A DNA stretch of 64,000 bases from Xenococcaceae cyanobacterium MO_167.B27 (lineage in GTDB: Bacteria > Cyanobacteriota > Cyanobacteriia > Cyanobacteriales > Xenococcaceae). The position numbers and the translations under genes were made by a program. The notes beneath the pieces were generated by a model. It was not told the DNA's origin. It did no database searches and saw only the letters and a program-made list of their open reading frames with translations. How positions within the stretch are numbered: position 1 is the first letter of the stretch; every line of letters starts with the position of its first letter. Positions 22,926 to 50,165 of the stretch are shown here, in pieces. The stretch lies in NCBI GenBank assembly GCA_030065935.1, contig JASJCP010000007.1:38538-102537 (forward strand). Reading direction: 5' to 3'.

Positions 22926-22979
22926 CTGTAAAGCGGTCAGACCCCGCGTCGCCGTCAGGCGCAAGGTAACGCTGACCAA

Positions 22980-23304: not shown

Positions 23305-23437
23305 TGTGGGTTTACTCATAAGTTAAAAATTTACGAATGAAAAAACGTTATTACAGCCCACGCCATTTACGCATAAGTCAAAACGTATTACTCATAAGTT
23401 AAAAATTTAATTACTTTTTTACTTATAAGTTAAAATT
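23305..23437 (+). repeat. Transposon left end with four dispersed TnsB-type sites
   Basis: TGTGGG terminus at 23305, then sites of the form TTTAC(T/G)CATAAGTTAAAA at 23311-23330, 23366-23385, 23387-23406 and 23418-23437 (the last with TTATAAG). The first two are separated by 35 bp. The spaced layout is that of the Tn7 left end. The same sites occur inverted and tightly packed at 45804-45886. Confidence 0.85.
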
Positions 23438-23681
23438 TTTTATATTATTCGATTTGGAAAACTTCCAAACCCTTATGAGATAAGAAGTATAGATTTTATC
23501 GGATTGTTGAGTACACCCAATCAACTATCAACAAGAATTAGGACTTCAAAATTTACCTCATTCAAAATTTAAATAAGAACCCCCATATCATAATCTACAA
23601 TTTTGGAAATTCGCTTCTAGACTAATTAATGTTTATTTGTAGTCTGTGAATAATAAAATGAGTCAGACTACCTCAAAATTA
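23438..23681. other. Spacer between left end and CRISPR array
   Basis: AT-rich, no gene seen and no further TnsB-type site. In CASTs this small gap holds no cargo; here it is about 245 bp. Confidence 0.5.
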
Positions 23682-24004
23682 ATGCTTAACGCCATAAGGC
23701 ATCTAAGGTGGTTGCAGATTACCTGGGGAAAGCAGCAGGAGTGGGCAACGGAGGGTGCTTAACGCCATAAGGCATCTGAGGTGGTTGCAGGATATTGAAT
23801 GGATGCTAAGTTGGAGTCCCATAAAGGTGCTTAACGCCATAAGGCATCTGAGGTGGTTGCAGAAGTTTGAACCTTATTATAGTTCTTATTTAATTCGTGC
23901 TTAACGCCATAAGGCATCTGAGGTGGTTGCAGAGTTAGACCAGGAACAGATAAAACGCCACCTATAACGTGCTTAACGCCATAAGGCATCTGAGGTGGTT
24001 GCAG
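23682..24004 (-). CRISPR. CRISPR array, five repeats and four spacers
   Basis: 36-nt repeats at 23682-23717, 23755-23790, 23827-23862, 23897-23932 and 23969-24004. Repeat start GTGCTTAACGCC, middle palindrome GCCATAAGGC, end GAGGTGGTTGCAG. Spacers are 37, 36, 34 and 36 nt. The repeat at 23682 differs at its first base and at 23705 (G to A), so it is the old, leader-distal end. Transcription is therefore inferred from the cas side, on the minus strand, with the leader at 24005-24266. Without cas1 and cas2 the array cannot grow by itself. Confidence 0.95.
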
Positions 24005-24266
24005 GGCAAAATCTGCAAAGCCCAATTGGTATGGACTTGTAGACAATTTTACATGCACCATGATTGTAGTATACTTATTTTGAGATGAACTGAATAATAA
24101 ATTTATAAATTTTAACTTAAAACCGTTTCTCCATAAGCATTTGAGCAAATTCAAGCACCTCTAAAAAAAATTATTTCGATGTAACCCTTACAGGAAAATG
24201 GTTTGAGCCTCTTTTTTCCATTATTATTTCAAAACAATCATAGATCCTTGCAAAAAAATATTGATT
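24005..24266 (-). promoter_or_regulatory. Probable CRISPR leader
   Basis: About 260 AT-rich bases between cas5 and the first leader-side repeat. The orientation is inferred from the degenerate repeat at the opposite end of the array. No gene seen. No degenerate extra repeat was noticed in it. Confidence 0.5.
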
Positions 24267-24968
24267 CTAACTATTTGCCTTCTCAAACATTGATAGCCAT
24301 TCACCATCTGGAATGAAAGTCATAGCATTCTTGGTAGCAGAAAAGAGAAGGCTTTTTGTTTGACTGGGGTTATTACGGTCGATCTCAACTGTCAAATTTA
24401 TAGCACCTGGCTCTAGTTCAAGATTTGAATTAACTTGTACGAACCAATGAGTTGGAAGGGGTTTTTCTAAACAGTCGATTCTATCGAATAGAAAATTATT
24501 ATCTCCTGCAAAGGGAAAACCATAGAAAGGGCGATCGCATTCACCATTCAATCCTTGGCGAATGCAGGAAATTAATTCTGAATCGGCTTGTACTCCAAGC
24601 ATCATATCTAAGTTAACAATAACTTCGCGGTAAGTCGGTTCAATCCAGTATTTGTTTCCATGGGTTTTTGCCTTACGCTCTTTACCAGTCTGACCGATTG
24701 GATAACTGTGCATATTTTGAAGCAGAACGCTTATCTCACTATTATTTCCTGCTACTCTGCCAAAGGCTAGTTTTATAGTAGGCAGATCGGAGCGAATTGG
24801 TGTGATGCTTTTTTTGAGACTACCCCGCATTTCGATTCCAGCTAGATTGAGAATTAATCCATAAGCAGCAGAGGGAGGCATTATAGGCATGGTATCCCGA
24901 TAAGTACCAGTTCTCAAAGAAGAAAAGCTCGCAAATGGAGCGCGAACGTACAGCCAGAGTGTCTCCAT
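24267..24968 (-). CDS. cas5: Cas5, Cascade subunit (type I-B CAST)
   Basis: 233 aa. The N-terminus METLWLYVRAPFASFSSLRTGTYRDTMPIMPPSAAYGLILNLAGIE is the Cas5 RAMP signature (binding of the crRNA 5' handle, Pro-rich loop, then GLILNLAG). Later PIGQTGKERKAKTHGNKYWI and YREVIVNLDMMLGVQ fit Cas5 of the group once called MYXAN/Cmx5. Its ATG overlaps the stop codon of cas7 (TAATG). It is the last gene of cas6-cas8-cas7-cas5 and lies next to the array. Confidence 0.85.
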   Translation of the reverse strand: METLWLYVRAPFASFSSLRTGTYRDTMPIMPPSAAYGLILNLAGIEMRGSLKKSITPIRSDLPTIKLAFGRVAGNNSEISVLLQNMHSYPIGQTGKERKAKTHGNKYWIEPTYREVIVNLDMMLGVQADSELISCIRQGLNGECDRPFYGFPFAGDNNFLFDRIDCLEKPLPTHWFVQVNSNLELEPGAINLTVEIDRNNPSQTKSLLFSATKNAMTFIPDGEWLSMFEKANS

Positions 24969-25888
24969 TACGTTTCTTCTTTGGATAAAAACTGTTGAGA
25001 TATTTCTGCTAAAAGGGTTTCGGGATTATTGTTCAATTTAACCTTATTGGTTTCTAATTGTTGCTTAATTTCTTGAGGCATCTGACGAATAATTTCTCCA
25101 CCCAGCCAAAATTCTTCTCCTGGTAGCTCCTTCTCAGTTAGCCGATCTAATTCTTTAAATTCTCCTTCTTCATCAAACCCATAGGTATCGTAGCCTGGAA
25201 CTCGACATGGTGTTAGTCGGGCTATAAGGCTTCTAGGACTCATCTGGACATAACTAACGCTTTGACCACCAGCCACTTCGCTCAGTTGTGCGATCGCTTT
25301 GATTAAAGCCTTTGTCCACTTGGGTTGGGAGATACAGTCTGATCGCGATAGAGCAAAGGGATATTGATAAGCAGTATAGCTTACTTGTCTGTAAAGTAGA
25401 GTTGTTTCGCTAATGTTATTCCAAGGACTTTTTTCTGTATTTCTCGGGGCTTGTTGTAAGTGAATATTGATATCAGAGGACAGACCAACTGCTAGGTTAT
25501 TTCTTAAAATACTGTCTCTTTTAGGTGGTAGATCGGGATTAGCAGCGATCGCCGTTCTATCAGTGACACAAAAACCAAAGAAAAAGTCATCAATGTATTT
25601 TTCAGCATTAGGAAAAGCTTGATACTCTACTTCTGGTGCGCCAGCCGTTTGAACCCGCGTGCGATTGCAAGGCAATCCTTCTTCATGCAATATACGTCTT
25701 AAAGCATCCCGAATAGCATAAGGGCTGATAACGGCGTAATCTCTACCTTTTTTGGAAATTGTCTGAAGTACTTTGTTATTGTCGTCTCCTTTATTATGGT
25801 GATTCGCGCTTGGGGCAGCATAGGTCAAAATTGTTGCGAAAAGATTCAGTCTTTTGACTTTAGCTTTTTCAGGAGTACTTTCTGTCAT
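24968..25888 (-). CDS. cas7: Cas7 (DevR/Cst2-like), Cascade backbone
   Basis: 306 aa. LNLFATILTYAAPSANHHNKG at the start, then GRDYAVISPYAIRDALRRIL and YEYQAFPNAEKYIDD-type text, match DevR/Cst2-type Cas7 proteins that polymerise along crRNA. Typical length about 300. It is followed with a 1-nt overlap by cas5 and preceded, 31 nt away, by cas8. No frameshift or obvious gap seen. Confidence 0.87.
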   Translation of the reverse strand: MTESTPEKAKVKRLNLFATILTYAAPSANHHNKGDDNNKVLQTISKKGRDYAVISPYAIRDALRRILHEEGLPCNRTRVQTAGAPEVEYQAFPNAEKYIDDFFFGFCVTDRTAIAANPDLPPKRDSILRNNLAVGLSSDINIHLQQAPRNTEKSPWNNISETTLLYRQVSYTAYQYPFALSRSDCISQPKWTKALIKAIAQLSEVAGGQSVSYVQMSPRSLIARLTPCRVPGYDTYGFDEEGEFKELDRLTEKELPGEEFWLGGEIIRQMPQEIKQQLETNKVKLNNNPETLLAEISQQFLSKEET

Positions 25889-25919
25889 AGTTTACCAATA
25901 GTTAGGCGGTTAAAAATAA

Positions 25920-27719
25920 TTAGATGACAGGCAATGCTAACAAACACAGTATGCGAATTTGCTCTGGCTCAGTCTGTATTAGCTTGGCAAGTAATAGATA
26001 TTCTTCAGTAGTTATGTATTGATACACATCGGTAAACTTCGCAGCAAAATAAGCTAAGAATTCATGGACTTGGCGAGGGCGACAAAGATCGTGATGGAGA
26101 TCTGTTATTATCTGCTGTCGCTTTTTTTTGTATTCCTGATAAGCAGCTATTTCTTTTAGTTCTTTTGTCTTAATATTATTCCAATTTTCGTCCCATTTCA
26201 ACTTGAATCCGCGTTCTAATTGATGTCGAGTGTAAGTCTTTAAAAGGCGTAGTAACAGACTTTCTATAGAAATTTCTTTAGGTTGATTTAACTCTGAATT
26301 GTTGGTGGAATCGGGTTTTTCATTCTCTTTGGAAGTTATAACTTCAGTTTCTTTCTGTTCCATAGCATTGTTGTTGGGACTAAATACAGTTCGGAAGTCT
26401 TGGCAAAACCAACCATTTTTAATTGTCTCGGCAGTAGGAGAATCTCGTAAGAGAGTATAAAATCCTTCAATTCTGGGTCGATCGCGAGTTAAGTTTTGCC
26501 AGTATTGTTGGCGAAATAAGGGGCTGTAAAGCTTGTCTTGCAGTTTGGTAAATTCAGCGATCGCATTCCTGTGAGGTAGATAACGCTTAATACTCAGTAT
26601 CTGGGGTTTGCTTTGGGGTTTATCTTGGGGTCTGAATATATGAAAAACATCTATACCAAATAGTAGTTTGTCTATGTTTAATTCTGACTTTATTTGAGAT
26701 AGATAAGAATGAATTGAGCCTAATGAATCTAATCCCGTTTCTTCTAAGTTACGAACGATCGCACTACGAGGTTTACCCCATAGTTCTTTCGTTTTTCTTT
26801 CTCGCAAGATGGCAGGAAAATGATGGCAGAAAGCAGCTAAATGACGAATATCGGGAATGGCGATCGCATAACCATTTAATTTCACTTTGCCTTTGATATC
26901 TACTATTATGGGCAGGTAAATTCGAGCAACATAACTCCAAAAGTTGAGCAAAAATCGCTCTCTTGCCAAATCGGTAAACGACACTCCTTCATTATTTTTG
27001 GCTTGCGCTCCCAACATATAAGTACTAGATAATGGTACTTTTGAATCTGGTTTATCTTGTAGCAGATTCCAGATTTTTTCGATTTCTGAAGGCTCTGTGT
27101 CGTTAGCCATTGCCTTAAATGGCAGTCTTTGTTTGTCGCGAGGACGCAATACTGCCCAGGTTACTTCTTGCCATAATTTTGTCCAAACTAGATTTTGGCT
27201 ATTGGCTGGCTCAAAGCTTCGTACTAAATTTCCTTGAGGCACGATGTCTGTGTAGATATAGAAAGTAGTAAGCTTACTTCTGCCCGTATCGGAATTGCGA
27301 ACTTTTCGCTTAATCGTTTGGAATTTTTGCTTGCTGTTTGCCCTTTTCTTTTCACGTTCTCTTTCCTCAAAAGCAGCACTGAAATGAGCTTTCATTAGGG
27401 CGGTAAATCCAGCTAAATTGAATTGAACTGTAACTGTATCGGCATCGAGATCGGTAACTTTTAATTTTGCATTAGCCAAGTTTTTAAACTCCGATCGCTT
27501 TTGAAGCCACTGTATTATTAGTACCAACCCTGCTAAACCCGCTCGATGTTGGGAGGATGGTAGCTGACTCAATACGTATTTAAGCGTTACTAGATTCTTG
27601 TTCTTTGTCACCTTCATTCTCTTGCAGATCCAGACTACTAATAGGCGAGAAAAATCCGCATCCCATTTTGCCTTTGCCCCCACAGCCATTGACTTGAAGA
27701 GCGATCGAGTTGAGGGCAT
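25920..27719 (-). CDS. cas8: Cas8, large Cascade subunit (Cmx8-like)
   Basis: Up to 599 aa. The likely start is the internal ATG at 27617 (565 aa, KVTKNKNLVTLKYVLSQLPS), which overlaps the end of cas6 by 38 nt; the upstream part up to 27719 only mirrors cas6 in another frame. Recognisable segments include SSQHRAGLAGLVLIIQWL, YAIAIPDIRHLAAFC and a C-terminal helical bundle, as in Cas8 of type I-B/MYXAN systems. Cas8 recognises the PAM and holds target DNA; in CASTs it also contacts TniQ. The reading frame is uninterrupted. Confidence 0.8.
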   Translation of the reverse strand: MPSTRSLFKSMAVGAKAKWDADFSRLLVVWICKRMKVTKNKNLVTLKYVLSQLPSSQHRAGLAGLVLIIQWLQKRSEFKNLANAKLKVTDLDADTVTVQFNLAGFTALMKAHFSAAFEEREREKKRANSKQKFQTIKRKVRNSDTGRSKLTTFYIYTDIVPQGNLVRSFEPANSQNLVWTKLWQEVTWAVLRPRDKQRLPFKAMANDTEPSEIEKIWNLLQDKPDSKVPLSSTYMLGAQAKNNEGVSFTDLARERFLLNFWSYVARIYLPIIVDIKGKVKLNGYAIAIPDIRHLAAFCHHFPAILRERKTKELWGKPRSAIVRNLEETGLDSLGSIHSYLSQIKSELNIDKLLFGIDVFHIFRPQDKPQSKPQILSIKRYLPHRNAIAEFTKLQDKLYSPLFRQQYWQNLTRDRPRIEGFYTLLRDSPTAETIKNGWFCQDFRTVFSPNNNAMEQKETEVITSKENEKPDSTNNSELNQPKEISIESLLLRLLKTYTRHQLERGFKLKWDENWNNIKTKELKEIAAYQEYKKKRQQIITDLHHDLCRPRQVHEFLAYFAAKFTDVYQYITTEEYLLLAKLIQTEPEQIRILCLLALPVI

Positions 27720-28269
27720 TTAATCCTGTAACCACCACCCCAAAACCGACAACTTTATGCTGGTGTACTTTGATGATTTTGCGATCGCTTTCTCCCAAAG
27801 CATTATTAGGAACATAAGCTTCGCAGTCTTCAATTCCTAGCTTTTGAAGGTGATATTTCACAGCACCAATAAAAGGTTCGGGTTCTTTAAATCCTTTGAT
27901 TACTAACAATCGCGCCTTTAAAATTTTAGATGGACAGATTGGATGAATTTCTGGAGGTTCGAGAACTAAAGAATGCTTGCCTACTTTGAGTAGCTTTTGA
28001 ACTAATCTTAGAAATAGCGGAATTTGCTCCCATCCCGCTCTGATTCTCAGTCGAGAATATTCTGTCAGCGTGATTTCTCCTCGACCAGTTAACGTTCCAC
28101 CAATTGTTGCCATTCTCCAGCCATTAGACTCATGGATCGCAGGAACAATCCTAGACATTGCACCATACAGTTTATGTCCATGATCTGCTGGTAACGATTT
28201 GCCAACTAATGGATATCTGAGTTCCCAGTAGCTTTTAGTTAAATCTTTAGTTGAAGACAAAACAAGCAC
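27580..28269 (-). CDS. cas6: Cas6, crRNA-processing endoribonuclease
   Basis: 229 aa. LYGAMSRIVPAIHESNGWRM near residues 34-53 carries the candidate catalytic His. RGEITLTEYSRLRIRAGWEQ follows, and the Gly-rich loop NGCGGKGKMGCGFFSPI lies near the C-terminus. These are Cas6/Cmx6 features. Cas6 cuts the repeat transcript and usually stays on the 3' hairpin of the crRNA. It is the first gene of the Cascade set, just downstream of brxL but separated from it by about 110 bp. Confidence 0.83.
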   Translation of the reverse strand: MLVLSSTKDLTKSYWELRYPLVGKSLPADHGHKLYGAMSRIVPAIHESNGWRMATIGGTLTGRGEITLTEYSRLRIRAGWEQIPLFLRLVQKLLKVGKHSLVLEPPEIHPICPSKILKARLLVIKGFKEPEPFIGAVKYHLQKLGIEDCEAYVPNNALGESDRKIIKVHQHKVVGFGVVVTGLNALNSIALQVNGCGGKGKMGCGFFSPISSLDLQENEGDKEQESSNA

Positions 28270-28380
28270 AAGAATATTTGTACTTTTTTAGTTTACCTTT
28301 TACAAGTGTTCTGATCGATCTTGAGTAATTAATGTGAGTTAGATGAAGCTTTTCTAAAACTTCGGTTTTAATTCTTTGGT

Positions 28381-30438
28381 TTATTTACTGTGTAAAAAAG
28401 TAACTTCAAATGCTTTACAGTTTCTAAACTCCTGCAATCTGTTCGATATGGAGAATACGTCATTCATTTCATAATGTTGAAAGATATCAAGTCCGCGATC
28501 AAGAGATATCTTCCAGTTAGTGTCGGTAACTATGTGACGAGCATGAATAGTATTTGTACCATCAAATTCCCAGGTGAATTCAATACCAGCAATAGAGGCT
28601 GATTTCTTAATACTTTCAAGATATTCTATCTGAGACTCACCTTTAAATTCGTCTAATGTAGTGATTAGATGGATATTTAGCTCATCTTCTTTTACCTTCT
28701 GTTTGATTGCGGTTTCGATAAATTCCATCAGATTTCTTGCCTGATAAAAAAGACGAATGTAGGGATCGGTAATTACAATCTTCTTGGCATTCTTTAGGTA
28801 TGGTCCAAATAGCGAATCAAATGAAACACCTCGCTGATTTTCTTGATATACAAGATGCTGCTCTTTTAAGACACAAGAAGTTGTTTGTTCTTTTTGGTTG
28901 TCAATCGAAGCTGATTCAGATTTCTTAACTTTTTTTGAAGTTGCTTCGCTACCAAGGGTTTCTAGTTTTTGATAGTAGTAAGCAGGATATTCTTCTTCTT
29001 CGAGAGTAGTAACAGCCTGAGAAATACCTTCATTGTCATCGTAGGAGAAGTGAACCTCAGCATAGGTAGAATCGATCCGAAGCAGCTGGTCTTTAACGCG
29101 CTTGCGCCCTTCCATTGAAAAACGCAGTAATTCTTCTGTCTCCTGTTTGGTTGCCCTGCCATTGGGGAAGAGGATCTTCATCAAGCCTGAGAAAGTTTTG
29201 TGAATAGCATCGCGATCGCGAGTCGAAATATCCGATGAGAGAGTAAAGTGGTTTTGGTAGCGATCTGAATAATCGTAGTTTCGCATCGATCGCAGAATTT
29301 CGGCGAGGTAATCGACGACAAATCCGTAGTTACAAGAGAACATTTCACCCCTAATAATATCCACCTCCCATCCTGGGATATAGAAATGGATTCGATCTAA
29401 AAATGCCGAGTCGTGAAATTTATCGGGCAATTCCTCAAATAAATCTGAGTGTTTGAGCATGTAAGGAACGTTATGCTTAGTGTTGCCGACAAATACCATT
29501 GAAGCCTCAGCACCTAAAGTTTCTACACCCCGCGAGAAGGTTTTGTTTGCCATAAAGTTCTTCATGATGTCTACCAGTGCCTTGTTAACTCTCTTTTGTT
29601 GCCCAGCAAACTCATCAAAAGCTACGACATCCCAGTATCCAACCAGACCAATTTTGCCACTGGAATTATTGACAAACAGCTTGGCAACAGTCACTTCTCC
29701 ACCCGATATTAGGGTGCCGTGAGGAGAAAACTCGGAGAAAATGTGAGATTTCCCCGTCCCTTTAGGACCTAGTTCGATTAAGTTATAGTTCCGTTCGCAG
29801 AAGGGAATAAGACGTATAAGCTGGGTTAATTTACTGCGTTTGCCAAACAGTTCGGGATTGAAGCCAATACTCTGCATGAGCAGGTCGATCCATTCTTCAG
29901 TAGAGAAGTGTTGGCGGGCTTCTACATAACCATCAAAGTCAAAATGAGATAGCTGAATTGGCTTAAGCGAGGACAAAATCCAGGGAGAGATCTTTTTATC
30001 TTCTGTGAATTCATATTCAACATCGGCAATACACCAGACACCGCTTACCAGAAGCTTGGGGTGTTTTTTTACCGTTGTAGAATCCACAACTACCTTTTTA
30101 ATTCCCAAGTTGGCAAAAGTAGCTTCGTAAACATCTGCTTTTTCATTGAGGGAGACTTGAATTCTATCGATGACTTTGTAGCGACCTCTTTCTTTGATGT
30201 TTGAACGGATTAGTCCTGCTTCGTTGCGATGAACATAGTGTTGGCGTAAAATTTCTTTTACGGTATCGATGCCCTGCTCAATCGTAGCTTCATCGTTGGT
30301 AGCGCAATATTGTCCGAGCAGATACTCCAAGACATAGGAAGGAACAATCGCGTTACCTTTGACCATTTTCACCAGATCTTTGCGTACAACAAGACCTTGA
30401 AAGTGCTGGTTAATTTTGAGATCAAATTGATTCTTCAA
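28381..30438 (-). CDS. brxL: BrxL, Lon-like AAA+ protein of type I BREX
   Basis: 685 aa, full length for the family. Walker A GPKGTGKS at residues 224-231 lies in NLIELGPKGTGKSHIFSEFS, Walker B in DVVAFDEFAGQ near 270, followed by DLFEELPDKFHDSAFLDRIH. The Lon-protease-like C-terminal part starts after 500. BrxL forms ring-shaped ATPase assemblies on DNA and is needed for phage blocking in type I BREX. It is the last gene of the BREX series, 13 nt after the pglZ remnant. No disruption visible. Confidence 0.88.
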   Translation of the reverse strand: MKNQFDLKINQHFQGLVVRKDLVKMVKGNAIVPSYVLEYLLGQYCATNDEATIEQGIDTVKEILRQHYVHRNEAGLIRSNIKERGRYKVIDRIQVSLNEKADVYEATFANLGIKKVVVDSTTVKKHPKLLVSGVWCIADVEYEFTEDKKISPWILSSLKPIQLSHFDFDGYVEARQHFSTEEWIDLLMQSIGFNPELFGKRSKLTQLIRLIPFCERNYNLIELGPKGTGKSHIFSEFSPHGTLISGGEVTVAKLFVNNSSGKIGLVGYWDVVAFDEFAGQQKRVNKALVDIMKNFMANKTFSRGVETLGAEASMVFVGNTKHNVPYMLKHSDLFEELPDKFHDSAFLDRIHFYIPGWEVDIIRGEMFSCNYGFVVDYLAEILRSMRNYDYSDRYQNHFTLSSDISTRDRDAIHKTFSGLMKILFPNGRATKQETEELLRFSMEGRKRVKDQLLRIDSTYAEVHFSYDDNEGISQAVTTLEEEEYPAYYYQKLETLGSEATSKKVKKSESASIDNQKEQTTSCVLKEQHLVYQENQRGVSFDSLFGPYLKNAKKIVITDPYIRLFYQARNLMEFIETAIKQKVKEDELNIHLITTLDEFKGESQIEYLESIKKSASIAGIEFTWEFDGTNTIHARHIVTDTNWKISLDRGLDIFQHYEMNDVFSISNRLQEFRNCKAFEVTFLHSK

Positions 30439-30451
30439 GATTTACCCTCCT

Positions 30452-32236
30452 TTAAAAATCAAAATCACTGGTAAACGAACGGCGCATAGTATATTTTAGT
30501 GACTTATACTCTTTGTATTGGGATGTCCCTGCATGTTTTTGTTCGAGACGTAAAGTTACCTCTTGTCCGTTTAATTCATCTGCTTTCTTGGTTAGGATAA
30601 ACATTACCCTTTGCTCTCGTTCTCTTGAATTAGGAGAGGTAATGTCGAAAGAAAGTTCATGGGCATCGGAGATTAGTTCGTCATTTTGAGCATAAATTCC
30701 CGCTCTTAGGTATCTAGGATGTATTTTTTCGGTGATAGCTTCTGTTTGATAGATAGTAACTACCAGTTGTTTGGAAGAAATAATCGAACTTGCCCCAGGA
30801 ATAATGTTTACCTCAACTAAAGTTGTATCGCTCTGGCGTTTTTTGTTGATTTTAAGCACGGGGATGACTATTTCTTGTAACGATGCCCCTCCATGAACGT
30901 ATCGGCTCCCAGAACCTTTGCGCCGTAATCGATTGATTGATTTAGGAATTTGTACCTCCAAGTTTCCTGAGAGTCCTAGTTCTTCTGAAGTAAACTTTCG
31001 TAGGCTAGAATTTTCCTCAAGACCTCTTCCGAGGATAAAACGGCGATCGCGAAACAGAATTTCTTCTCCTTGGGGTTCGACGCTGGCAAAATCACTCTCG
31101 TCGAGGCTGCGGTTTTGGTAAATAAACCCGTGATCTGCCGTAATCAAAATGTTACTAACATTTGCATTTGCCAGTTTCTTAACCAGTTGAATTAACTCTT
31201 TGAGGGTATCTTCTACCGCTTCAAAAACCCTCTCTTCTGAGTCTCGCTTGTCACCTGTAGCATCGATACGGTTGTGATAGACATATACAACATCGTGGTT
31301 GCGAACTAGCGATCGCCTATCTTCTTGATTGAGCTTCATCAATTCTTCTGCTTTGACCGCAGTAGCCCGTTCAGGAAGAGCGCGATCTAATTGCTTTTGG
31401 CGGTTTACTAGCCCTTGGGAGCTTTGATCGTCTACCTCAACATTGCCTTTGTCGGTTAGGCTTAGAGAACCATTGGGTAGCAACGCTGCCATGCCTAGTT
31501 GAGTATAGCTGGGTAACATGGTCATGGCAGCTTCAAGATCTGCTTCGTAACGGTCTTCGCTGCGAATTAACCTTAAAAACTCTTCCCCGATTTCATAGCG
31601 TAGGGCATCGGAAATAATTACAAATACCTTGCGATTCTTCTTCAAGAATGGTTTTATCCAACGGGAGAAAAATTTTCTCTGAAGAATCACGTCAGCAGCA
31701 GACCATTTCCCTGTAGCATCTACCAAATTTTGCCAGCGATCGTTTAGAGGCAAAAGGTAGTTGTTAACGTAATGATTCTCAACTAGATCGCTCAAACTTT
31801 CCATTACAGTAGATTCCGCAGATTGAAGCACATGGTAAACGAATTTACGATAGAGTTGGTCTAGGCGAAACCAAGAGTGACAATATTTTTGAAATCCTTC
31901 TGTAAGAGAATCCATTGTCAAGTATGCTTCATTTAACTCTTTTATCAACTGAGCTGCTGCATCAATAGCTTTGTATAAATGTTCAAACTCTTTATACCAA
32001 TAGCTTTGTTTGCGCTGCCGAATCCAGGAAGTAACATCAAAAGAAGATGCGGTTTTAGTTACAACACCGCGAACAAGATCGCTAATAATTTTGTTCTCGA
32101 TTACTCGAAAGTAATCTATGTCAATCAGATCCGTAATCTCTCGCGTTGCTAAATCTTGCTCGATTCTGGGGTCTTCAGCGCATTGTTTTGATAGGGTTTT
32201 AAAAGATTCTTGCCATTTAATGAAATAACTGCCCTC
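30452..32236 (-). pseudogene. pglZ: PglZ (BrxZ), N-terminally truncated
   Basis: The homologous frame runs from about 32236 down to the stop at 30452, but no ATG, GTG or usable TTG precedes the first conserved block; the first ATG downstream would start at about 31948 (498 aa). The remaining protein holds the alkaline-phosphatase-like core: VFVIISDALRYEIGEEFL (metal/catalytic loop), YHNRIDATGDKRDSEER and ILITADHGFIY. About 250-350 N-terminal residues present in normal PglZ are missing. The frame is joined out of register to the broken pglX at about 32217-32236. Translation could still occur by coupling, as an AGGAGG lies at the junction. Confidence 0.85.
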
Positions 32237-33533: not shown

Positions 33534-33545
33534 GATAATAACCTC

Positions 33546-37016: not shown

Positions 37017-37027
37017 CTATTTCCTCG

Positions 37028-38516: not shown

Positions 38517-40379
38517 TCAGTAAAAACAAGCAACTACCTGCTGTTTCAAAAATAGATATTGCCTTCCACCATCAACTTGCTTTCCACTAATGGGAAAAAC
38601 ATTTTTTTCATTTAACAAACTAATTACCTTTCTGGGAGAAGTATGTATCTGACAAGCTAATTCAACAGCAGTGACATATTGGGTATGAAATTTTGCTATC
38701 GACGACTTTAAGACTTTTCTATGACGATGATGTTGGTGAATCTCGATCTCCGCCTCAATAAAACCGCGATCGATCCAAAATGCAGCTACTTGTTGCTTTA
38801 CCCCTAGCAGGATCGCAACATCTAATACGGTTAAAATTTCTTCGTCTCCTTTGAAGTATTCCTCTACCAGACGATTTACATCTCGGACATCGAAGCAATA
38901 CTGTTTCAATCCAATTCCTTTGTCTTTGCTAATTGGAACTATGGTTTTATCTAAAATTGCCTCAACCAAACTACCAATTGTGCATCCAGAACCACTCAAT
39001 CTGCGAATTGCCAAGTCGAAAGAACATTTGTTGGTTATCTCATTATTTATTGTTTCATTCAATAGAGTATCAATATGGTTCAATAGCTCAACTGGTGCAT
39101 TGCGATTTATCAGCCATTTTTGATGTCCATCTACAGTACGTCCTCGAAAAGCAGTCAAACAAGAGTGTTCGATTAGATTAACTACAGCTTTGCGTCCAAT
39201 CCCTAAAATCGTAGCTACGTCCTTGGGAGAAATAGCATTTTTCAGGTTTTGTAGATAAGCTTCTGCACTCTCTCTTTCGACTAATATCGATGTTCTTTTG
39301 CCCATTTTACGCAACCGACCCTTTAAAGTACCACACTCAACCGATCGCAATACCCAAGCTTCAGTCATTTTAAGCAACTTTGCCGTTTCTACTCCAGAAA
39401 GAAATTTGCGATCGCTACCATCAGGTATTTCAATCCGTCCCAGTTTTGAATTTAAGTAACCTCCATCCCATTGAGTCGCTAAATAATTTTCAAAAGCTTC
39501 GTGTAGAAAGCCAAAAGTCTGTCTAGGAAAATTTTTATAAAGTCGGCGATAAAAGTTACCAAAATCTCTAGCTATTCCCGTATCTCTCTCTGGGTGAGAA
39601 CTTCTATTTTTGTACCATTCTAAGAAACGCTCAAAGCCATGAGGAAATTCTTGGAGATAATTCCAAGCAGAAAGAAATAGTTCGTGTAATTCAACATTGC
39701 TACGATTGGTAGCGATAAATTTACCTGTTGTGTCACCAACATCAATTAGTTGACCTGCAAAAAAGGAAAAAAGACTAATCAGGTGTTCCAATTCTAAATT
39801 CAAAATCGGGTGGCAATCGCCAATTAGTTGAAGTTCGGCTTTTCGCAATTTTCCTAAACCGCAAGCTGCGAATAACAAATGAGAAGGAATAGTTTTTGGT
39901 AATTCAAGGATTTTCGATCTAATATCGCACCAATCTAGCTTGCAATACTTACATTCATTGACAGAATTACGATCCCAACGAATAGGGCGATCGCATTGAG
40001 GGCAAACATCTACAAGCAAGCAATGGTGAATCGGACAGACTGTAAGGGGAATTAAATTCCAAATCTTTCGACAATAAGACTTTTCTGCCAGACAACAGGG
40101 ACATATCTTTGCCTTAAGCTTAGATAGATTATAGGTGGGTAAAGATCTGCCAAAAAATTTGACTCTAGCAACTTTGCTCGATTTGTACTCCCGAAAAGCC
40201 ATTTTCCATAGCGTAGACTCTTCAACTGAAAGTAATCGAGCCAATTTAGAAAAATCCTGAGTAGTGCGATCGCAAAAGTTCCCATTAGCTGCATACTGAG
40301 GAATTTCTGCCAGACTATAAATCCATTGGGGTGAAGAATAACGGTTGACTTGGCTTAGACGAAGAACATAGCCAGCCAA
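38517..40379 (-). CDS. tnsD: TnsD-like target selector (TniQ domain plus DNA-binding modules)
   Basis: At least 620 aa. The homologous frame extends beyond the first TTG at 40379: upstream in-frame codons encode LLRRPRPYADED, which with LAGYVLRLSQVN makes the conserved TniQ N-terminus. The frame closes at a TAA at 40424 with only ATA (40418) as a possible start. The TniQ domain carries zinc-binding Cys/His (ICPCCLAEKSYC, CPIHHC, CPQC, CKYCKLDWC). The C-terminal half has repeated winged-helix/MerR-like modules (FLSGVETAKLLKMTEAWVLR, ISPKDVATILGIGRKAVVNL, LTVLDVAILLGVKQQVAAFW, VTAVELACQIHTSPRKVISL). It should choose the chromosomal homing site, here probably gyrB. Confidence 0.85.
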   Translation of the reverse strand: MAGYVLRLSQVNRYSSPQWIYSLAEIPQYAANGNFCDRTTQDFSKLARLLSVEESTLWKMAFREYKSSKVARVKFFGRSLPTYNLSKLKAKICPCCLAEKSYCRKIWNLIPLTVCPIHHCLLVDVCPQCDRPIRWDRNSVNECKYCKLDWCDIRSKILELPKTIPSHLLFAACGLGKLRKAELQLIGDCHPILNLELEHLISLFSFFAGQLIDVGDTTGKFIATNRSNVELHELFLSAWNYLQEFPHGFERFLEWYKNRSSHPERDTGIARDFGNFYRRLYKNFPRQTFGFLHEAFENYLATQWDGGYLNSKLGRIEIPDGSDRKFLSGVETAKLLKMTEAWVLRSVECGTLKGRLRKMGKRTSILVERESAEAYLQNLKNAISPKDVATILGIGRKAVVNLIEHSCLTAFRGRTVDGHQKWLINRNAPVELLNHIDTLLNETINNEITNKCSFDLAIRRLSGSGCTIGSLVEAILDKTIVPISKDKGIGLKQYCFDVRDVNRLVEEYFKGDEEILTVLDVAILLGVKQQVAAFWIDRGFIEAEIEIHQHHRHRKVLKSSIAKFHTQYVTAVELACQIHTSPRKVISLLNEKNVFPISGKQVDGGRQYLFLKQQVVACFY

Positions 40380-40494
40380 ATCCTCATCTGCGTAAGGTCT
40401 GGGACGGCGAAGTAATATATTTTATTCCAAATTCCCGCTCTTCATCTAATTTTGCAGCGATCGCTATAAACATCTCTTTTTCATATAATATCAC

Positions 40495-40522
40495 ATATTT
40501 ACATCAGATATGATGTAAATAT
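40495..40522. promoter_or_regulatory. Candidate operator palindrome between tnsD and the RHH gene
   Basis: ATATTTACATC (40495-40505) and its exact complement GATGTAAATAT (40512-40522) with a 6-nt spacer. It lies between divergently read tnsD and the ribbon-helix-helix gene, where a repressor site would be expected. Binding by that protein is inference. Confidence 0.6.
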
Positions 40523-40588
40523 ATTACTATGAGATATAGATAATAGATTGTGAAACGCGGAGTATTAACATAGTTAAAGAAATAAGTT

Positions 40589-40801: not shown

Positions 40802-40848
40802 AGTTGTGTTGTGTCAATCTTGATATAGATTGCAATCTCTTGGAGTCA

Positions 40849-41532
40849 TTATTTCAGATGAAGGTCTTCTAACTTGCGTCGGAAGGTGGCAACGAGGCTT
40901 AATTTCTGTAAATGGTTTTTTCTTTGTCCAAATCGCTTGTACTCCACTCGATAAAAGCGATCGAACCATTCTATAAAATACGATAAATTGCTAGTTCCAG
41001 TTTCATATATCTGTGCCGATTTTGATAGCAATTTGTGTAGCTTTCGATTAGTCAATGGTAATTGAAGTCGATATAAACTATCTCCTGGATTGTGTAGCGA
41101 TAGGGCAGTAGATATCATTAGCAGCGATATTTGGGATAAGCTAAGGTCAGAAAGTGGAGATTTAGAACTTAGAGATGTTGATTTCCCCTCTGTTAATTTG
41201 CAGCTACGAGCTACTACTTCACTTAAGTCATTTTCTTCTTGCTTTATTTTGGTAACTAACGTCTCACCAAACTGCCATCCGCATTTACATTTCCAGTCAT
41301 TCTTCAACTCATCCCAATTCCACACAGACTGACATTGGGGGCAGGTATCAACTAATAAGCATTGGTGAATATAACAACTGGTATAGCACCACAAACACTG
41401 GTCTTTGTGATAATAACCATCAGTAGCAAAACAAGTAGGGCAAATCTTTATTTTTTCCCGCTCTAACCACTCATAATCCAAAACAGAGCGATAAGCTTTG
41501 ACTTTGCGATCGCCCATTTCTGAAAATACCAT
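40849..41532 (-). CDS. tniQ: TniQ, N-terminally truncated, overlapping tnsC
   Basis: 227 aa from ATG 41532. Zinc-binding Cys/His are present: ICPTCFATDGYYHKDQCLWC, CYIHQCLLVDTCPQC, CKCGW. Comparison with the neighbouring TnsD (STLWKMAFREYKSSKVARV) shows that the frame upstream of the ATG still encodes a match (GHLWEMVFSEM) and then closes at TAA 41565. The first 60-80 residues of a normal TniQ, including the ESL..Y..RL..N segment, are missing. In I-B CASTs this shorter TniQ binds Cascade for RNA-guided insertion. It probably cannot do so in this form. Confidence 0.75.
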   Translation of the reverse strand: MVFSEMGDRKVKAYRSVLDYEWLEREKIKICPTCFATDGYYHKDQCLWCYTSCYIHQCLLVDTCPQCQSVWNWDELKNDWKCKCGWQFGETLVTKIKQEENDLSEVVARSCKLTEGKSTSLSSKSPLSDLSLSQISLLMISTALSLHNPGDSLYRLQLPLTNRKLHKLLSKSAQIYETGTSNLSYFIEWFDRFYRVEYKRFGQRKNHLQKLSLVATFRRKLEDLHLK

Positions 41533-42499
41533 CTCCCATAAATGCCCTTCTTCTTTGTTTACTTATATCAAACGCATAACTTCCCTCAAAATCTAGTCTT
41601 TTAACCAGAAACGGCTCGGTATATTTAAAAGGCTTTTCATGCTTGAGGTGTCTCTCGTAAACAGTATTCAAAATCTCTAAATCGAGTCGTTTTAGGTCTT
41701 GTTTGATCGCTAAAGTAGCCCCTTTACGAATTAGTGTCATAATATGGGCAATAGTGCCGTCAGTTGCGTAATAAATACGTTCAGCCATAGACTTGTTAGC
41801 TAATCCAGATTTTTCTGCCAAAGGTAACTGCTCTTCTATATCACTGAGAAATTGTCGAAACAACTTCATTCCCGAATCATTGCGAGGAAAAGGAATCAAT
41901 TCATGACGATAAGTAAATCTACGGCTTAACTGTGAATTATCAACCTCCAAAATCCTTTTAGACTCAGGTAATCCAAATAACACAACGGGTATCCGGGTAT
42001 TTAAAATTAGATTCTTTAACCAATCGCAAACGTTTCTCAAAACTCGTTGAGATTCGCGATCGATAAAATGGTGAAATTCATCCAGTACAATAAGTTCGAC
42101 TTGACAAGCAGCTAATAGATCGTATGCCCTACTGGTCTGATTAGTAGTTGTTCCTTTGTTGTATAGAGGATCGCCAAGCTTTTTTAAGATAGCTTCCACT
42201 AGCCCTTTTACCGTTGCGGGGACGGGAATTGGTGTATACACTATAGGGACAATACTCCCCTCATCTGTTTCTTGTCTGGGATAGTTTTGAGCGTAAGTTT
42301 TGTAAATTGTTGTCTTTCCTGCTCCCGCTTCGCCAATTAACAAAAGACAATCGGGATCGCTGTCTGCGTTAGTTTCGGGACTGTAATGACATTCGTAAAT
42401 ATCTTCTAGCACGCGATTAAATAAAGGATAGGTAGCATAGATTTGATTTGCAGCTATTATTTTTTCCTTAGTTGTAGCGTATTTAGTATCTTTAGACAT
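41471..42499 (-). CDS. tnsC: TnsC, AAA+ regulator of Tn7-like transposition
   Basis: 342 aa. Walker A GEAGAGKT at residues 56-63, Walker B VELIVLDEFHHF (D140, E141), then VVLFGLPESKRIL and SRRFTYRHELIPF as in TnsC/TniB. TnsC polymerises on DNA and links the target selector to TnsB. The last about 22 residues (MGDGIFRNGRSQ onward) lie in sequence that belongs to tniQ in another frame, so the original C-terminus and stop codon appear to have been lost in a deletion. The ATPase core is intact. Confidence 0.88.
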   Translation of the reverse strand: MSKDTKYATTKEKIIAANQIYATYPLFNRVLEDIYECHYSPETNADSDPDCLLLIGEAGAGKTTIYKTYAQNYPRQETDEGSIVPIVYTPIPVPATVKGLVEAILKKLGDPLYNKGTTTNQTSRAYDLLAACQVELIVLDEFHHFIDRESQRVLRNVCDWLKNLILNTRIPVVLFGLPESKRILEVDNSQLSRRFTYRHELIPFPRNDSGMKLFRQFLSDIEEQLPLAEKSGLANKSMAERIYYATDGTIAHIMTLIRKGATLAIKQDLKRLDLEILNTVYERHLKHEKPFKYTEPFLVKRLDFEGSYAFDISKQRRRAFMGDGIFRNGRSQSQSLSLCFGL

Positions 42500-42577
42500 A
42501 AATTTCAGTATTGAAATAAGTTTGAATTTCTAATGTTATGAAAGCCATCTCAAACGTGGCTCGATCTCACCGCTAAA

Positions 42578-44947
42578 TTATCGGGAAGGAGGTTTCCATT
42601 GAGGCAATCCAATACTGGCTCTCGATTTTGTCTCTTGTTTTGGCGGTTGCTCTTGTTTCTTATTTGTAGATGAACTTGTTTCAGCTAGATTATCTATAAT
42701 GTGCTGCTTTTCTCTCAGAGATTCTTGTTGCTTCTTGTTAGCAGTTGAACTGGTCTTATTTTTTCGCTCTGATTTGGATTTGCGAGCTATCGATTTTTTC
42801 CCAGCTTTTGACTGGGACTTTTTCTGAGTCTTTGAAGGTTTAGTTTCGCTTTTGGTATTAACAGAATTCTCTGGCAATATTTCAACAGAAATTTCTTCAG
42901 CTTTAGCGTCTAACTCTACAGCACTGGAGAAATCAGATATACCCGCATTGATATTAGATAATACTGGCTCTGCATCAACTGTAATTTCATCAAATGGATT
43001 GGCAGGCTCGATCCCCTTTGATCTTTCTTGGGCGAAAATTATATCTTCACCCCTACCTGTTCCCATATATTTGATTACTTGCTTAGAAGTTTTTGCTGCT
43101 TTTGTTTTCTTTATTGCATCGCCAACAATATTTTGAATTTGCTGTTTGGCTAATGCTAGTGCGACAACATCTACATTTTGCCCATTTTGAATTATTCCTT
43201 GATTTAAAGCATATCGATGAATAATTCTATGTTGAGCCAGTGAGAGACTCTGAGTGTAATTCTGATTTATCGCTGGAACTGCTACATATTCTCTTGTCTG
43301 AGGATCGAAGACATGAATAACTGAAATATCGTTCCGATTATATTTAAACTTAGCTTTTTCTCTTCCTCTAATTTTGTCTCTTCTACGGAAATCGCCTGCC
43401 TCATAGCGATCGCGTAATGCTTGTAGGCGATCGCTATTGTAAAACAAATAATAAAACTCAATTCCTTTTCTACTGATAGTTCTCTCTTCAATATCTCCTA
43501 ATAAAACCTTTAAAGTATCATCAGAACTGGGCAAGGAAATAGGATAGGATAGGACTCCATGATCCCAAACTGAAGCGCGAGGATTTTTAAATTTAGTATG
43601 GGAACTTTGATTATGTATATCTATTAGGAAGATATGAATGATTTCTTGTAGTTCGTCTAGCGTTACAACCGCCTGCTTTTTGGGATCGTAATCATTTTCT
43701 TCCAAAAACTTGGCGCAACTTCCTGGAATTTTGCCATTCAACTGTTTCTGAATACTGCCAAAATATCTCTCAACTGTAGGTTTATACCAAGGTGTTCTAA
43801 CAGGACAAAATTCTAAATTTACTTTTAGTTCACGACAAGCGTCTTCTAATGATTTGCCTCGAAAATCTCTACCATTATCGACTTTGAGGGTTTCCATTAA
43901 ACCAAAAGAAGTCCAATTATTTTTGACGCGAGCATACTCCGATTTTACGTATTCTTTCGCTCGAATGCTATGCAACAAGCAATACATAACTGAAAGATAA
44001 CTAGGTGGGTCAAAAGTTAAGTAATATCCAACGACCGTTTGTGAATACACATCGATTGCAGATGTAAGCCAGGGTAAACCTACTGGTAATCTATGCTCAT
44101 TGTCCAAAACAAAGAAAGGTAACTTACAGTGATCGATTTCTACGACCTCCAATGGTCTAGTAGGATTGAGGCTCTTACCAGCACTCACAGGGCGATGAAT
44201 CAAATCTGAGGTTCTCTTTCCTAAACGTGCTTCATCTCTCTTTTGAGAAGGAATTTTTTTGATGATATTCCGAATTGCCATATAGTTAGGAATTTTTAGC
44301 TCTGGCAAACTTAAAGATTGTCTATACTGATTTTCTTCTACAATCAAAACAATCACGCGATCGTAGGTATCTTTGATAGAACCTTGGTTACGATTGAGGT
44401 ATATCTCATCAATTGCTTGTTGGATAATATTGTGAACTTCTGGAGCTAATCTGGAGTTACGATTGCCTTTCTTTTTAGTATTTGATACTAAAGAATGAAT
44501 ACTCCCTTCAGATTGCTTGTATTTCTTGACCCATTGATAAACCGAACTATATGAAGGTTTAGGTTTATTCTGAATTTCTTGTGGGATATTCTCGTCTAGT
44601 TTTATCTGACGATATACTTCTTTAATGATTGGTTCTAAAGCTTGTTTAGTAGACTTATTTATCCCCTCTTCTAAGACTTTCTTGACATATTTTTCTCGCC
44701 AAATTGCATTGTTTCTATCTGTTTCATTCAGATCGGGGAAAGCGATATGTTGTTGAAACTTTGCCGTAATGAACTGAAGTTCCCCTTTAAACAAAAGGTC
44801 TATAATATCAGTTTCTGACAAGCTAGTTTCTTTTATTGTAACTACATTGCGGATTTTCCAGTCTCCTGGAGGTATGCGTGCGATTAATTCATATTCTTGT
44901 CCATACAGTTCAAACTTTAAACCATCTCGCAACGTTATTTTAGACAT
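42578..44947 (-). CDS. tnsB: TnsB, DDE transposase
   Basis: 789 aa. Catalytic triad: D272 in LEVVEIDHCKLPF, D357 in LKVDNGRDFRG, E393 in TPWYKPTVERYFGS. N-terminal helix-turn-helix regions bind the transposon ends; residues 131-150 (PSYSSVYQWVKKYKQSEGSI) look like one. The last about 110 residues are Ser/Lys/Gln-rich and disordered, the region that contacts TnsC in related systems. It joins and cuts 3' ends. The start overlaps tnsA by 8 nt; tnsC follows after 78 nt. No damage seen. Confidence 0.93.
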   Translation of the reverse strand: MSKITLRDGLKFELYGQEYELIARIPPGDWKIRNVVTIKETSLSETDIIDLLFKGELQFITAKFQQHIAFPDLNETDRNNAIWREKYVKKVLEEGINKSTKQALEPIIKEVYRQIKLDENIPQEIQNKPKPSYSSVYQWVKKYKQSEGSIHSLVSNTKKKGNRNSRLAPEVHNIIQQAIDEIYLNRNQGSIKDTYDRVIVLIVEENQYRQSLSLPELKIPNYMAIRNIIKKIPSQKRDEARLGKRTSDLIHRPVSAGKSLNPTRPLEVVEIDHCKLPFFVLDNEHRLPVGLPWLTSAIDVYSQTVVGYYLTFDPPSYLSVMYCLLHSIRAKEYVKSEYARVKNNWTSFGLMETLKVDNGRDFRGKSLEDACRELKVNLEFCPVRTPWYKPTVERYFGSIQKQLNGKIPGSCAKFLEENDYDPKKQAVVTLDELQEIIHIFLIDIHNQSSHTKFKNPRASVWDHGVLSYPISLPSSDDTLKVLLGDIEERTISRKGIEFYYLFYNSDRLQALRDRYEAGDFRRRDKIRGREKAKFKYNRNDISVIHVFDPQTREYVAVPAINQNYTQSLSLAQHRIIHRYALNQGIIQNGQNVDVVALALAKQQIQNIVGDAIKKTKAAKTSKQVIKYMGTGRGEDIIFAQERSKGIEPANPFDEITVDAEPVLSNINAGISDFSSAVELDAKAEEISVEILPENSVNTKSETKPSKTQKKSQSKAGKKSIARKSKSERKNKTSSTANKKQQESLREKQHIIDNLAETSSSTNKKQEQPPKQETKSRASIGLPQWKPPSR

Positions 44948-45536
44948 TTAATAATCTCTCCCAATCAATTTTTTCTGAGACTGCTGTGATCTCACTGTCT
45001 AACTGAATAGGTTGCTTGAGATCTATCTCGACTGAGCAACAGAATATCAACTTGAGCAATACATTACGAGGAATTTTATGGCAGTCAAGAATTTGATAAA
45101 TATTTGCTAACGAAGTTGGGACTTGAGATCTAACCACTTCCAAACAGTCTCGATATTCATTAATACTGAAGCTTTCTCGTGCATATCGATAAAGTAGCTT
45201 GATATTAGAGAAGATTGGCTCTTTTCTCACTTCCAACTCGCTCAAGGCAACAAATGTCCATCCCGTATTATTACAAATACTAGTTAATTGCTGGTACCGT
45301 CGCTTATATCGATTGCCCTGAAGTGTTTTTCTAGATTTAACATCGATAATTTGTTTCTTCCGACAGCGAATAACCTGGAAATCGGGAACATATTGTTTGA
45401 GTTTGCCTGACTCGTAAAAATTAAATGACATAGCTATCGTTGTATAAGATACAACATCTGGATCGAATTCCAGCCAGTACATAAAATCTCTTTTGAGCGC
45501 GGAATCATACCAAACACCCGTTTTGGGACTTGCGCT
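44940..45536 (-). pseudogene. tnsA: TnsA endonuclease, 5'-truncated with altered catalytic residue
   Basis: The conserved frame runs from about 45536 to 44940; the first ATG is at 45482 (180 aa). Upstream codons still encode KTGVWYDSALKRDF, the family block SxLExDF with Lys in place of the first catalytic Glu (codon AAA at 45494-45492). The other active-site residues are visible: Asp in YVPDFQVI and Lys in IIDVKSRK. The frame is closed by a TAA that coincides with the edge of the 78-bp hairpin at 45539-45616. Beyond the hairpin an ATG (45636) followed by MKGRSK could be the original start. TnsA cuts the 5' strands to give cut-and-paste transposition. Confidence 0.75.
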
Positions 45537-45538
45537 TT

Positions 45539-45616
45539 ATTAAAATACCAGCCTTTTAACTAATCCATTTAATTGTTAGGCTCTTACTGCTAACTGATGA
45601 AGGCTGGTATTTTAAT
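45539..45616. repeat. 78-bp hairpin (MITE-like) at the 5' edge of tnsA
   Basis: ATTAAAATACCAGCCTT (45539-45555) and its exact complement AAGGCTGGTATTTTAAT (45600-45616) with a 44-nt middle. The tnsA frame ends precisely at its left edge. Flanks are A/T runs, so a target duplication cannot be read clearly. Confidence 0.7.
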
Positions 45617-45717
45617 TTTTTGCTCCTTCCTTTCATTTTGCAGCTACTAAAATTGCCGACAGTCTGCTTGTATCCGCGATTCCCAACTAGTCTTCTAGAA
45701 ACAGCCATAAGATAAGG

Positions 45718-45787
45718 GTATCTCTTATAATTGTGAGGGGTCTCGCCTAAACTTGCTTCAGGTGTTCATGAACCCCGTGAGATACCC
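45718..45787. repeat. Imperfect hairpin between tnsA and the right end
   Basis: GGGTATCTC (45718-45726) pairs with GAGATACCC (45779-45787), with further inner pairing of GGGGT and ACCCC. It might be a small repeat or a transcript-end structure. No gene is seen in 45637-45803. Confidence 0.5.
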
Positions 45788-45803
45788 TAGATTGTACCTT
45801 AAA

Positions 45804-45892
45804 TATTTAAGCTTATGAGTAAAAAATATTTAAGCTTATGCGTAAATATTTTAACTTATGCGTAAATATTTAGGCTTATGAGTAAAAAGACA
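45804..45892 (-). repeat. Transposon right end with four packed TnsB-type sites
   Basis: Sites of the form TATTTAAGCTTATG(A/C)GTAAA at 45804-45823, 45827-45846, 45847-45866 and 45867-45886, then AAGACA with the terminal ACA at 45890-45892. Read inward the end is TGTCTTTTTACTCATAAG. Tight packing is characteristic of the Tn7 right end, the end that lies next to the attachment gene. The first base outside is 4 bp from the gyrB stop codon (45897-45899). Confidence 0.88.

Positions 45893-45896: not shown

Positions 45897-50165
<4,269 letters not shown>

What the first reader, a model, noticed from the sequence alone, without database searches (positions are those of the whole stretch)
23305..45892. 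A type I-B CRISPR-associated transposon carrying a BREX system between Cascade and the tns genes
Seen: CRISPR array, cas5-7-8-6, then brxL-pglZ-pglX-brxC-brxB-brxA in exact type I BREX order, then tnsD, tniQ, tnsC, tnsB, tnsA, all inside matched ends. Known: Tn7-like elements and CASTs carry cargo, often defence genes. Inference: BREX travelled as cargo of an RNA-guided transposon. BREX usually sits outside the cas/tns block of such elements; here it lies between the two halves of the targeting machinery, so the two systems may share regulation.
Basis: partly seen in the sequence, partly recalled or inferred. Interest (0 to 1): 0.93.

Follow-up and report, generated by a model that had tools for sequence, protein, structure and literature searches.

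The report
gyrB-homing CRISPR transposon, third I-B capture
In a cyanobacterium, a damaged transposon that carries CRISPR genes and a partly deleted BREX phage-defence system sits four bases past the end of the DNA-gyrase gene gyrB; it is likely a third, separate capture of type I-B CRISPR machinery by a transposon, predicted to have homed on gyrB, and the BREX genes lie in what is likely its ordinary cargo slot.

Summary
Three things change. (1) The element is a relic: a MITE-bearing insert interrupts tnsA, a 254-bp deletion removes the end of tnsC and the start of tniQ, tnsD has an early in-frame stop, and pglX lacks its last ~60% and pglZ its first part. Neither transposon nor BREX is likely to work; the flanking 5-mers do not match. 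(2) BREX between tns and cas is not odd: an I-B2 CAST read here has cargo there too, and two relatives have other genes after tnsD. (3) It fits neither known I-B CAST type. Its Cas8 scores 202-315 bits against 7 Cas3-bearing I-B systems but at most 6.4 bits against 4 I-B1/I-B2-type Cas8 proteins; TnsA and TnsB are separate; TnsB is ~24% identical to I-B1/I-B2. Its right end lies exactly 4 nt after the gyrB stop codon, as in 13 of 23 readable gyrB ends of the host family. I read it as a dead member of a third I-B CAST lineage that homed on gyrB. RNA-guided movement is inferred. Key surveys of cyanobacterial CASTs could not be opened.

The parts
23305..23440 (+). left end: TGTGGG terminus and 4 widely spaced TnsB-site-like repeats (23311, 23366, 23387, 23418)
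23682..24004 (+). CRISPR array, 5 repeats of 36 nt, 4 spacers of 34-37 nt; the repeat family occurs nowhere else in the genome (5 matches, up to 3 mismatches)
24267..24968 (-). cas5
24968..25888 (-). cas7 (Cst2/DevR type)
25920..27719 (-). cas8 (Cas8b/Cmx8); ORF of 599 aa, relatives 555-582 aa, so the true start is probably later
27580..28269 (-). cas6 (Cmx6); no cas3 between cas6 and cas8
28381..30438 (-). brxL
30452..31948 (-). pglZ, first ~350 residues not in this ORF; homologous frame runs on upstream to about 32200
32217..33533 (-). pglX, first 438 of ~1160-1210 residues only
33546..37016 (-). brxC
37028..37639 (-). brxB
37633..38286 (-). brxA
38517..40445 (-). tnsD: TniQ head plus a C-terminal run of predicted winged-helix modules; in-frame TAA at 40422-40424 near the start, ORF after it 620 aa (38517-40379)
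40849..41532 (-). tniQ remnant (227 aa), first part lost in a 254-bp deletion at 41554/41555
41471..42499 (-). tnsC; native part 41555-42499, the last residues are out of frame because of the deletion
42578..44947 (-). tnsB
44940..45708 (-). tnsA, interrupted by a ~109-bp insert that holds a 72-bp palindromic MITE-like repeat (45542-45613; 17 copies in the genome)
45812..45892 (-). right end: TGTC terminus and 4 closely spaced TnsB-site-like repeats
45897..50123 (-). gyrB (with intein domains), attachment site; stop codon at 45897-45899, right end begins 4 nt after it

Best explanation
This is a damaged Tn7-like transposon that carries a type I-B Cascade without Cas3 and a partly deleted BREX system and lies 4 nt past gyrB; it is likely a dead member of a third type I-B CAST lineage, whose TnsD is predicted to have steered insertion to gyrB and whose TniQ and Cascade would have steered RNA-guided jumps. 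Shown: the gene content, the lesions, the end at +4 nt after the gyrB stop codon here and in 12 other genomes of the family, and the distance of both the Cas and the Tns proteins from I-B1 and I-B2 CASTs. Inferred: in intact relatives TnsD, through its tandem winged-helix tail, binds the 3' end of gyrB and brings in TnsC and TnsAB, which join the ends just behind the stop codon without harming the gene. Inferred: the short TniQ binds crRNA-loaded Cascade, so that spacers send the element elsewhere, as in other CASTs. Inferred: the stretch between tnsD and cas6 is the cargo slot, filled here by BREX.
For: Right end TGT...CAT at exactly 4 nt after the gyrB stop in 13 of 23 readable gyrB 3' ends (27 family genomes searched, 24 with a gyrB match, 1 of these cut short); the same test was met by 34 of 46000 shuffled ends. 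tns genes follow gyrB in 4 of the 12 other genomes with the end: G046 tnsA and tnsB 1-626, G103, G238 and G175 parts of tnsA. G280 (no end at +4) has a 41-residue remnant of the TnsD tail 350 nt behind gyrB. Cas8: 202-315 bits against 7 Cas3-bearing I-B systems, -0.1 to 6.4 bits against 4 I-B1/I-B2-type Cas8; Cas7 285-350 against 28-48 bits. cas3 lies beside cas8 in 19 of 20 fetched relatives outside the family; none over the cut-off anywhere in G000. TnsB: 68 bits against both I-B1 (L135, same genome) and I-B2 (L132), 264 against an I-F3 CAST; best solved matches I-F3 TnsB and TnsC. Linkage elsewhere: G175 has tnsA-B-C-tniQ-tnsD and cas8-7-5-array on contigs C71 and C93; TnsB P0161, TnsD P0013 and Cas8 P0043 are all listed with an 88,043-bp contig of Cyanobacteria bacterium J06621_8. 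Cas8 clade: 55 of 120 listed hits at 51-92% identity, then a gap to 35% and less.
Against: No transposition or guide was tested. The 4 spacers match nothing in the phage or plasmid collections or the window. The TnsB tree does not resolve: I-F3 as sister has support 65/51, and grouping with I-B2 or I-B1 instead is not rejected (p-AU 0.44 and 0.24). Loss of Cas3 alone is not proof of co-option: G266, with no tns hit nearby, lacks it too, and G175 has a Cas3 on another contig. No target-site duplication. Every gyrB-adjacent copy of this kind that I could read is damaged or cut by a contig end; intact TnsD and Cas8 are known here only as proteins. In most genomes with the end at gyrB no tns gene of this kind is left, so the link of those ends to this lineage rests on the end sequence and position.
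Confidence: 0.7

Rival explanations
1. A Tn7-like transposon that homes on gyrB by TnsD, in which the Cascade is ordinary cargo and takes no part in target choice.
For: The nearest cousins by TnsB and TnsC in named plasmids (Nostoc N6, Nostoc HK-01) have tnsA, tnsB, tnsC-type and tniQ-type genes and no annotated cas genes. Cas genes as mere cargo occur in Tn7-like elements (PMC10293859, passage). No spacer target is known.
Against: Cascade without Cas3 in both G000 and G175 next to two TniQ-family genes (short TniQ and long TnsD), the layout of dual-pathway CASTs (PMC11406308, passages). A distinct Cas8 clade of 55 clusters, of which one is listed with the same named contig as TnsB and TnsD.
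Confidence: 0.17
2. A diverged I-B1 or I-B2 CAST.
For: Same Cascade subtype and the same kind of gene set; the TnsB tree cannot exclude grouping with either.
Against: Cas8 at most 6.4 bits to 4 such proteins, Cas7 about 23% identical to I-B2, TnsA and TnsB separate (against I-B2), TnsC and TnsB scores far below those to I-F3, site at gyrB and not at glmS or a tRNA gene (literature sites).
Confidence: 0.04
3. An intact, working BREX-carrying CAST, whose lesions are assembly or sequencing errors of a draft genome.
For: The genome is a draft of 282 contigs; the tnsD stop is a single codon.
Against: The tnsA insert contains a repeat with 17 copies in this genome; the 254-bp deletion and the pglX/pglZ loss are large and inside one contig; relatives are damaged too.
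Confidence: 0.05
4. BREX and the transposon are co-regulated.
For: All genes run in one direction.
Against: BREX is set off from tnsD by 230 nt and from cas6 by 111 nt, the slot holds other genes in relatives, and pglX and pglZ are broken. No promoter scan or expression data were used.
Confidence: 0.04

Closest known systems
Type I-B1 CAST (example in the same genome, L135 = G000:C64)
   Same: Cas3-less I-B Cascade, separate TnsA and TnsB, TnsC, TniQ; inserted beside a conserved gene (a SIS-domain, GlmS-like gene)
   Different: Cas8 unrelated by score (0.0 bits), TnsB 68 bits, long Tn7-type TnsC (567 aa) and full Tn7-type TnsA domains; site GlmS-like and not gyrB
Type I-B2 CAST (L132 = G169; Cas7 74% to PDB 8fcj_C, which I recall as PmcCAST)
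   Same: I-B Cascade, short TniQ plus long TnsD, cargo between tns and cas
   Different: TnsA and TnsB fused in one 926-aa protein; Cas8 5.0 bits, Cas7 23% identity, TnsB 68 bits; tRNA site by the review passages
Type I-F3 CAST (Tn6677; Aeromonas caviae plasmid L121)
   Same: separate TnsA, TnsB and TniB-type TnsC; best TnsB and TnsC matches among solved CAST proteins; some I-F3 elements use a TnsD for parE, the paralogue of gyrB (PMC11406308, passage)
   Different: I-F Cascade (Csy3, Cas6f) instead of I-B; TnsB only 34% identical
Canonical cyanobacterial type I-B (Cmx8) CRISPR-Cas
   Same: Cas5, Cas7, Cas8 and Cas6 of the same family and order
   Different: those have cas3 between cas6 and cas8 (19 of 20 loci) and no tns genes of this kind nearby
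Type 1 BREX
   Same: brxA-brxB-brxC-pglX-pglZ-brxL order and best model matches
   Different: pglX and pglZ truncated

Membership tests
CAST (RNA-guided Tn7-like transposon), any type | Tn7-like core tnsA-tnsB-tnsC-tniQ | tested here: met
   present, though tnsA, tnsC and tniQ are damaged
CAST, any type | crRNA effector without target-cleaving and adaptation genes, plus array, inside the ends | tested here: met
   cas6-8-7-5 and array inside the ends; no Cas3 over the cut-off in the genome. Cas1 and Cas2 were not searched genome-wide; none among the ORFs scanned in the element
CAST, any type | RNA-guided insertion | not testable with these tools
   no spacer target found
Type I-B1 CAST | Tn7-clade transposase, glmS-type site | tested here: not met
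   TnsB 68 bits to L135, Tn7 TnsB E 2.4e-14 against I-F3 2.3e-68; site is gyrB
Type I-B2 CAST | fused TnsAB, tRNA site | tested here: not met
   tnsA and tnsB are separate ORFs; no tRNA in the window
Type I-F3 CAST | I-F Cascade | tested here: not met
   Cas8b/Cmx8 and Cmx6
Type 1 BREX | six-gene set brxA-brxB-brxC-pglX-pglZ-brxL | tested here: met
Type 1 BREX | full-length PglX and PglZ | tested here: not met
   1-471 of 1210 and 353-843 of 844 profile positions; 1161 and 849 aa in Methylomonas koyamae

The most novel reading that the evidence does not exclude
A third, independent capture of a type I-B Cascade by a transposon ('I-B3'): an element of a CRISPR-free cyanobacterial Tn7-like stock took up a Cmx8-type Cascade, lost cas3, and pairs it with a TnsD that reads the 3' end of gyrB, so that elements land 4 nt behind the stop codon; the site has been hit so often that 13 of 23 family genomes bear an end there. 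It carries exchangeable defence cargo, BREX here.
Probability: 0.62. Interest if true: 0.8.

Novelty: new variant of a known kind. Interest (0 to 1): 0.7.

Why it matters
The papers that I could search count two captures of type I-B Cascade (PMC12452197, passage). A third with a different Cas8 and a different transposase stock would show how easily TniQ and Cascade can be joined, and gives a new pair to compare. A TnsD that places large DNA 4 nt behind gyrB, an essential conserved gene, would be a new safe-site integrator. The many bare ends at gyrB give a fossil record of how such elements come and go.

Tried and rejected
Rejected: a working BREX and BREX position as a novelty. Spacer matching to gyrB, which would have meant an RNA-guided insertion here: best 21-22 matches of 34-37 anywhere in the window, array masked. 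Trees: the mixture-model trees of TnsC and TnsB were saturated (one TnsC row, L120, and three of 70 aa were wrong ORFs picked by my script, and one was empty); the plain-model TnsB tree did not resolve. So the I-F3 kinship rests on scores alone. The genome-contig scans gave nothing with TnsB and only the G259 contig with TnsD. AlphaFold of TnsD: mean pLDDT 55.1, first half under 50; the tail (326-620) mostly 60-88 with repeated helix-helix-wing units; Foldseek gave no match at E <= 0.001, only local ones over 50-52 residues to BldC and Xis, so the winged-helix tail is a weak prediction. Rfam: none in 22000-46200. First MITE pattern had too short a gap and found nothing; repeated with a longer gap.

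Results against or loose ends: G266 lacks Cas3 without being a CAST. G090, with broken Cas8 pieces, was not fetched. In one search the four spellings of the inner motif were chosen after seeing the sequences, so the shuffle rate is a guide only.

Literature: nine searches; none of the listed titles describes a gyrB-homing CAST or a third I-B capture, but the lists were cut at 10-20 rows. Only passages were seen of PMC8649781, PMC11406308, PMC10293859, PMC12669027, PMC12452197 and PMC11903412. Not held and not seen: Hsieh and Peters 2023 (PMC9881144), Saito 2021 (PMC8276595), Rybarski 2021 (PMC8670466). Any of these may hold this lineage.
Full report
What is there. The stretch 23305-45892 holds, on the minus strand, tnsA, tnsB, tnsC, tniQ, tnsD, brxA, brxB, brxC, pglX, pglZ, brxL, cas6, cas8, cas7 and cas5, then a 5-repeat array. 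Four copies of TTTACKCATAAG-like sites mark each end, widely spaced on the left and tightly on the right, as in Tn7 (recalled). The gyrB stop codon is at 45897-45899 and the right end starts 4 nt behind it.

It is damaged. tnsA carries an insert of about 109 bp that is absent from the 4 relatives whose tnsA start could be aligned (G046, G103, G175, G238); 72 bp of it form a palindromic repeat with 17 copies in the genome. Against G175, 254 bp are missing across the tnsC end and tniQ start. tnsD has an in-frame TAA near its start, where full-length relatives read through without a stop. pglX keeps its first 438 residues and the pglZ ORF starts at profile position 353; in Methylomonas koyamae the two are 1161 and 849 aa. 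That one deletion event caused both is inferred from the two broken ends lying side by side. The 5-mers outside the ends differ, so the left flank has probably been rearranged.

BREX position. The I-B2 CAST L132 has tnsAB-tnsC-tniQ on one side, cas6-8-7-5 on the other and a NACHT-type gene between. After tnsD, G259 has SspD-, GmrSD- and DndA/SspA-like genes and G175 a PF00144 gene. The G175 and G259 contigs end before cas genes are reached on that side, so that the slot lies between tns and cas there too is inferred. BREX in Tn7-like cargo is known (PMC8649781, passage).

Not I-B1 or I-B2. The same genome offers an I-B1 CAST beside a SIS-domain, GlmS-like gene (L135) and G169 an I-B2 CAST with fused TnsAB (L132). 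The window Cas8 scores 315.5, 311.7, 296.3, 295.6, 248.1, 207.6 and 202.3 bits against 7 Cas3-bearing I-B systems, and 6.4, 5.0, 0.0 and -0.1 bits against the Cas8 of 3 I-B2-like loci and the I-B1 locus; Cas7 285-350 bits against 28-48; TnsB 264.5 against the I-F3 CAST of Aeromonas (L121), 90.7 V-K-like, 68.5 I-B2, 67.9 I-B1; TnsC 82 I-F3, 60 V-K-like, 21 I-B2, 17 I-B1. Cas6 separates less well (115-167 bits to 6 canonical proteins and 38.5 to a partial ORF, 118 to I-B1, 95 and 105 to I-B2-like). Cas3 beside cas8 in 19 of 20 fetched relatives, not in G266; none over the cut-off in G000. The tree of TnsB does not settle its sister.

Site. Of 27 genomes of the host family 24 gave a gyrB end; 23 could be read and 13 have TGT at exactly +4 nt with a TnsB-site-like CAT motif at one and the same place; 34 of 46000 shuffled ends did so (motif spellings chosen after the fact). 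tns genes of this kind follow in the window and in G046 (tnsA, tnsB 1-626), G103, G238 and G175 (parts of tnsA). The other 8 show only the end; in G259 the contig stops 25 nt behind the coding part of gyrB, inside that end. G280, without an end at +4, has 41 residues of a TnsD tail 350 nt behind gyrB. Within the family's 27 genomes, TnsD of this kind was found in G000, G175 and G259, and the tail remnant in G280.

The lineage. TnsD: 30 of 36 hits at 66% identity or more, the window's own included. Cas8: 55 of 120 listed hits (446 in all) at 51-92%, then 35% or less. TnsB: 47 hits at E <= 1e-200. In some searches only the ~8000 candidates sharing most words were scored. Equal contig lengths join TnsB, TnsD and Cas8 in Cyanobacteria bacterium J06621_8 (88,043 bp; all three carry that name), TnsD and Cas8 at 5,535,731 bp, TnsB and TnsD at 87,084 and 9,931 bp, TnsB and Cas8 at 20,484 bp; apart from the named one, that equal length means one contig is inferred.

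Mechanism. Shown: anatomy, site, lesions. Inferred from CASTs in general: TnsD reads gyrB and recruits TnsC and TnsAB; TniQ with Cascade sends the element to spacer-matched DNA; cargo rides between tnsD and cas6. The winged-helix tail of TnsD is a weak prediction. Nothing suggests that BREX and transposition share control.

Verdict. An ordinary-looking cargo placement, a broken BREX, and behind them a gyrB-homing CAST lineage that resembles neither known I-B type.

Noticed in passing
G000 contigs C35, C64, C31, C204, C15, C106, C262, C231, C187: The genome has 9 TniQ-domain matches over the cut-off and holds an I-B1 CAST, I-B2-like cas/TnsD loci and V-K-like tnsC/tniQ besides this element.
   Followed up: partly
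window 45542-45613: 72-bp palindromic MITE-like repeat, 17 copies in the genome, two of them on the contig with V-K-like genes (C15).
   Followed up: partly
window 45897-50123: gyrB is 1408 codons long with intein, LAGLIDADG and HTH domains; other family genomes have open frames from about 640-660 aa up to about 1660 aa at gyrB.
   Followed up: no
window 19627-23054: Left of the element: FGE-sulfatase-domain gene, IS66 transposase and open frames resembling broken copies; the genes behind gyrB in G280 (DUF411, a second ORF) are not in the window.
   Followed up: partly
L066 and L202 (G175 contigs C93 and C107): Both contigs end at residue 95 of a tnsA, one coming from gyrB and the right end, the other from the array and left-end side, which hints at two elements side by side; cas8 has a frame break and tnsA an in-frame stop there.
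   Followed up: partly
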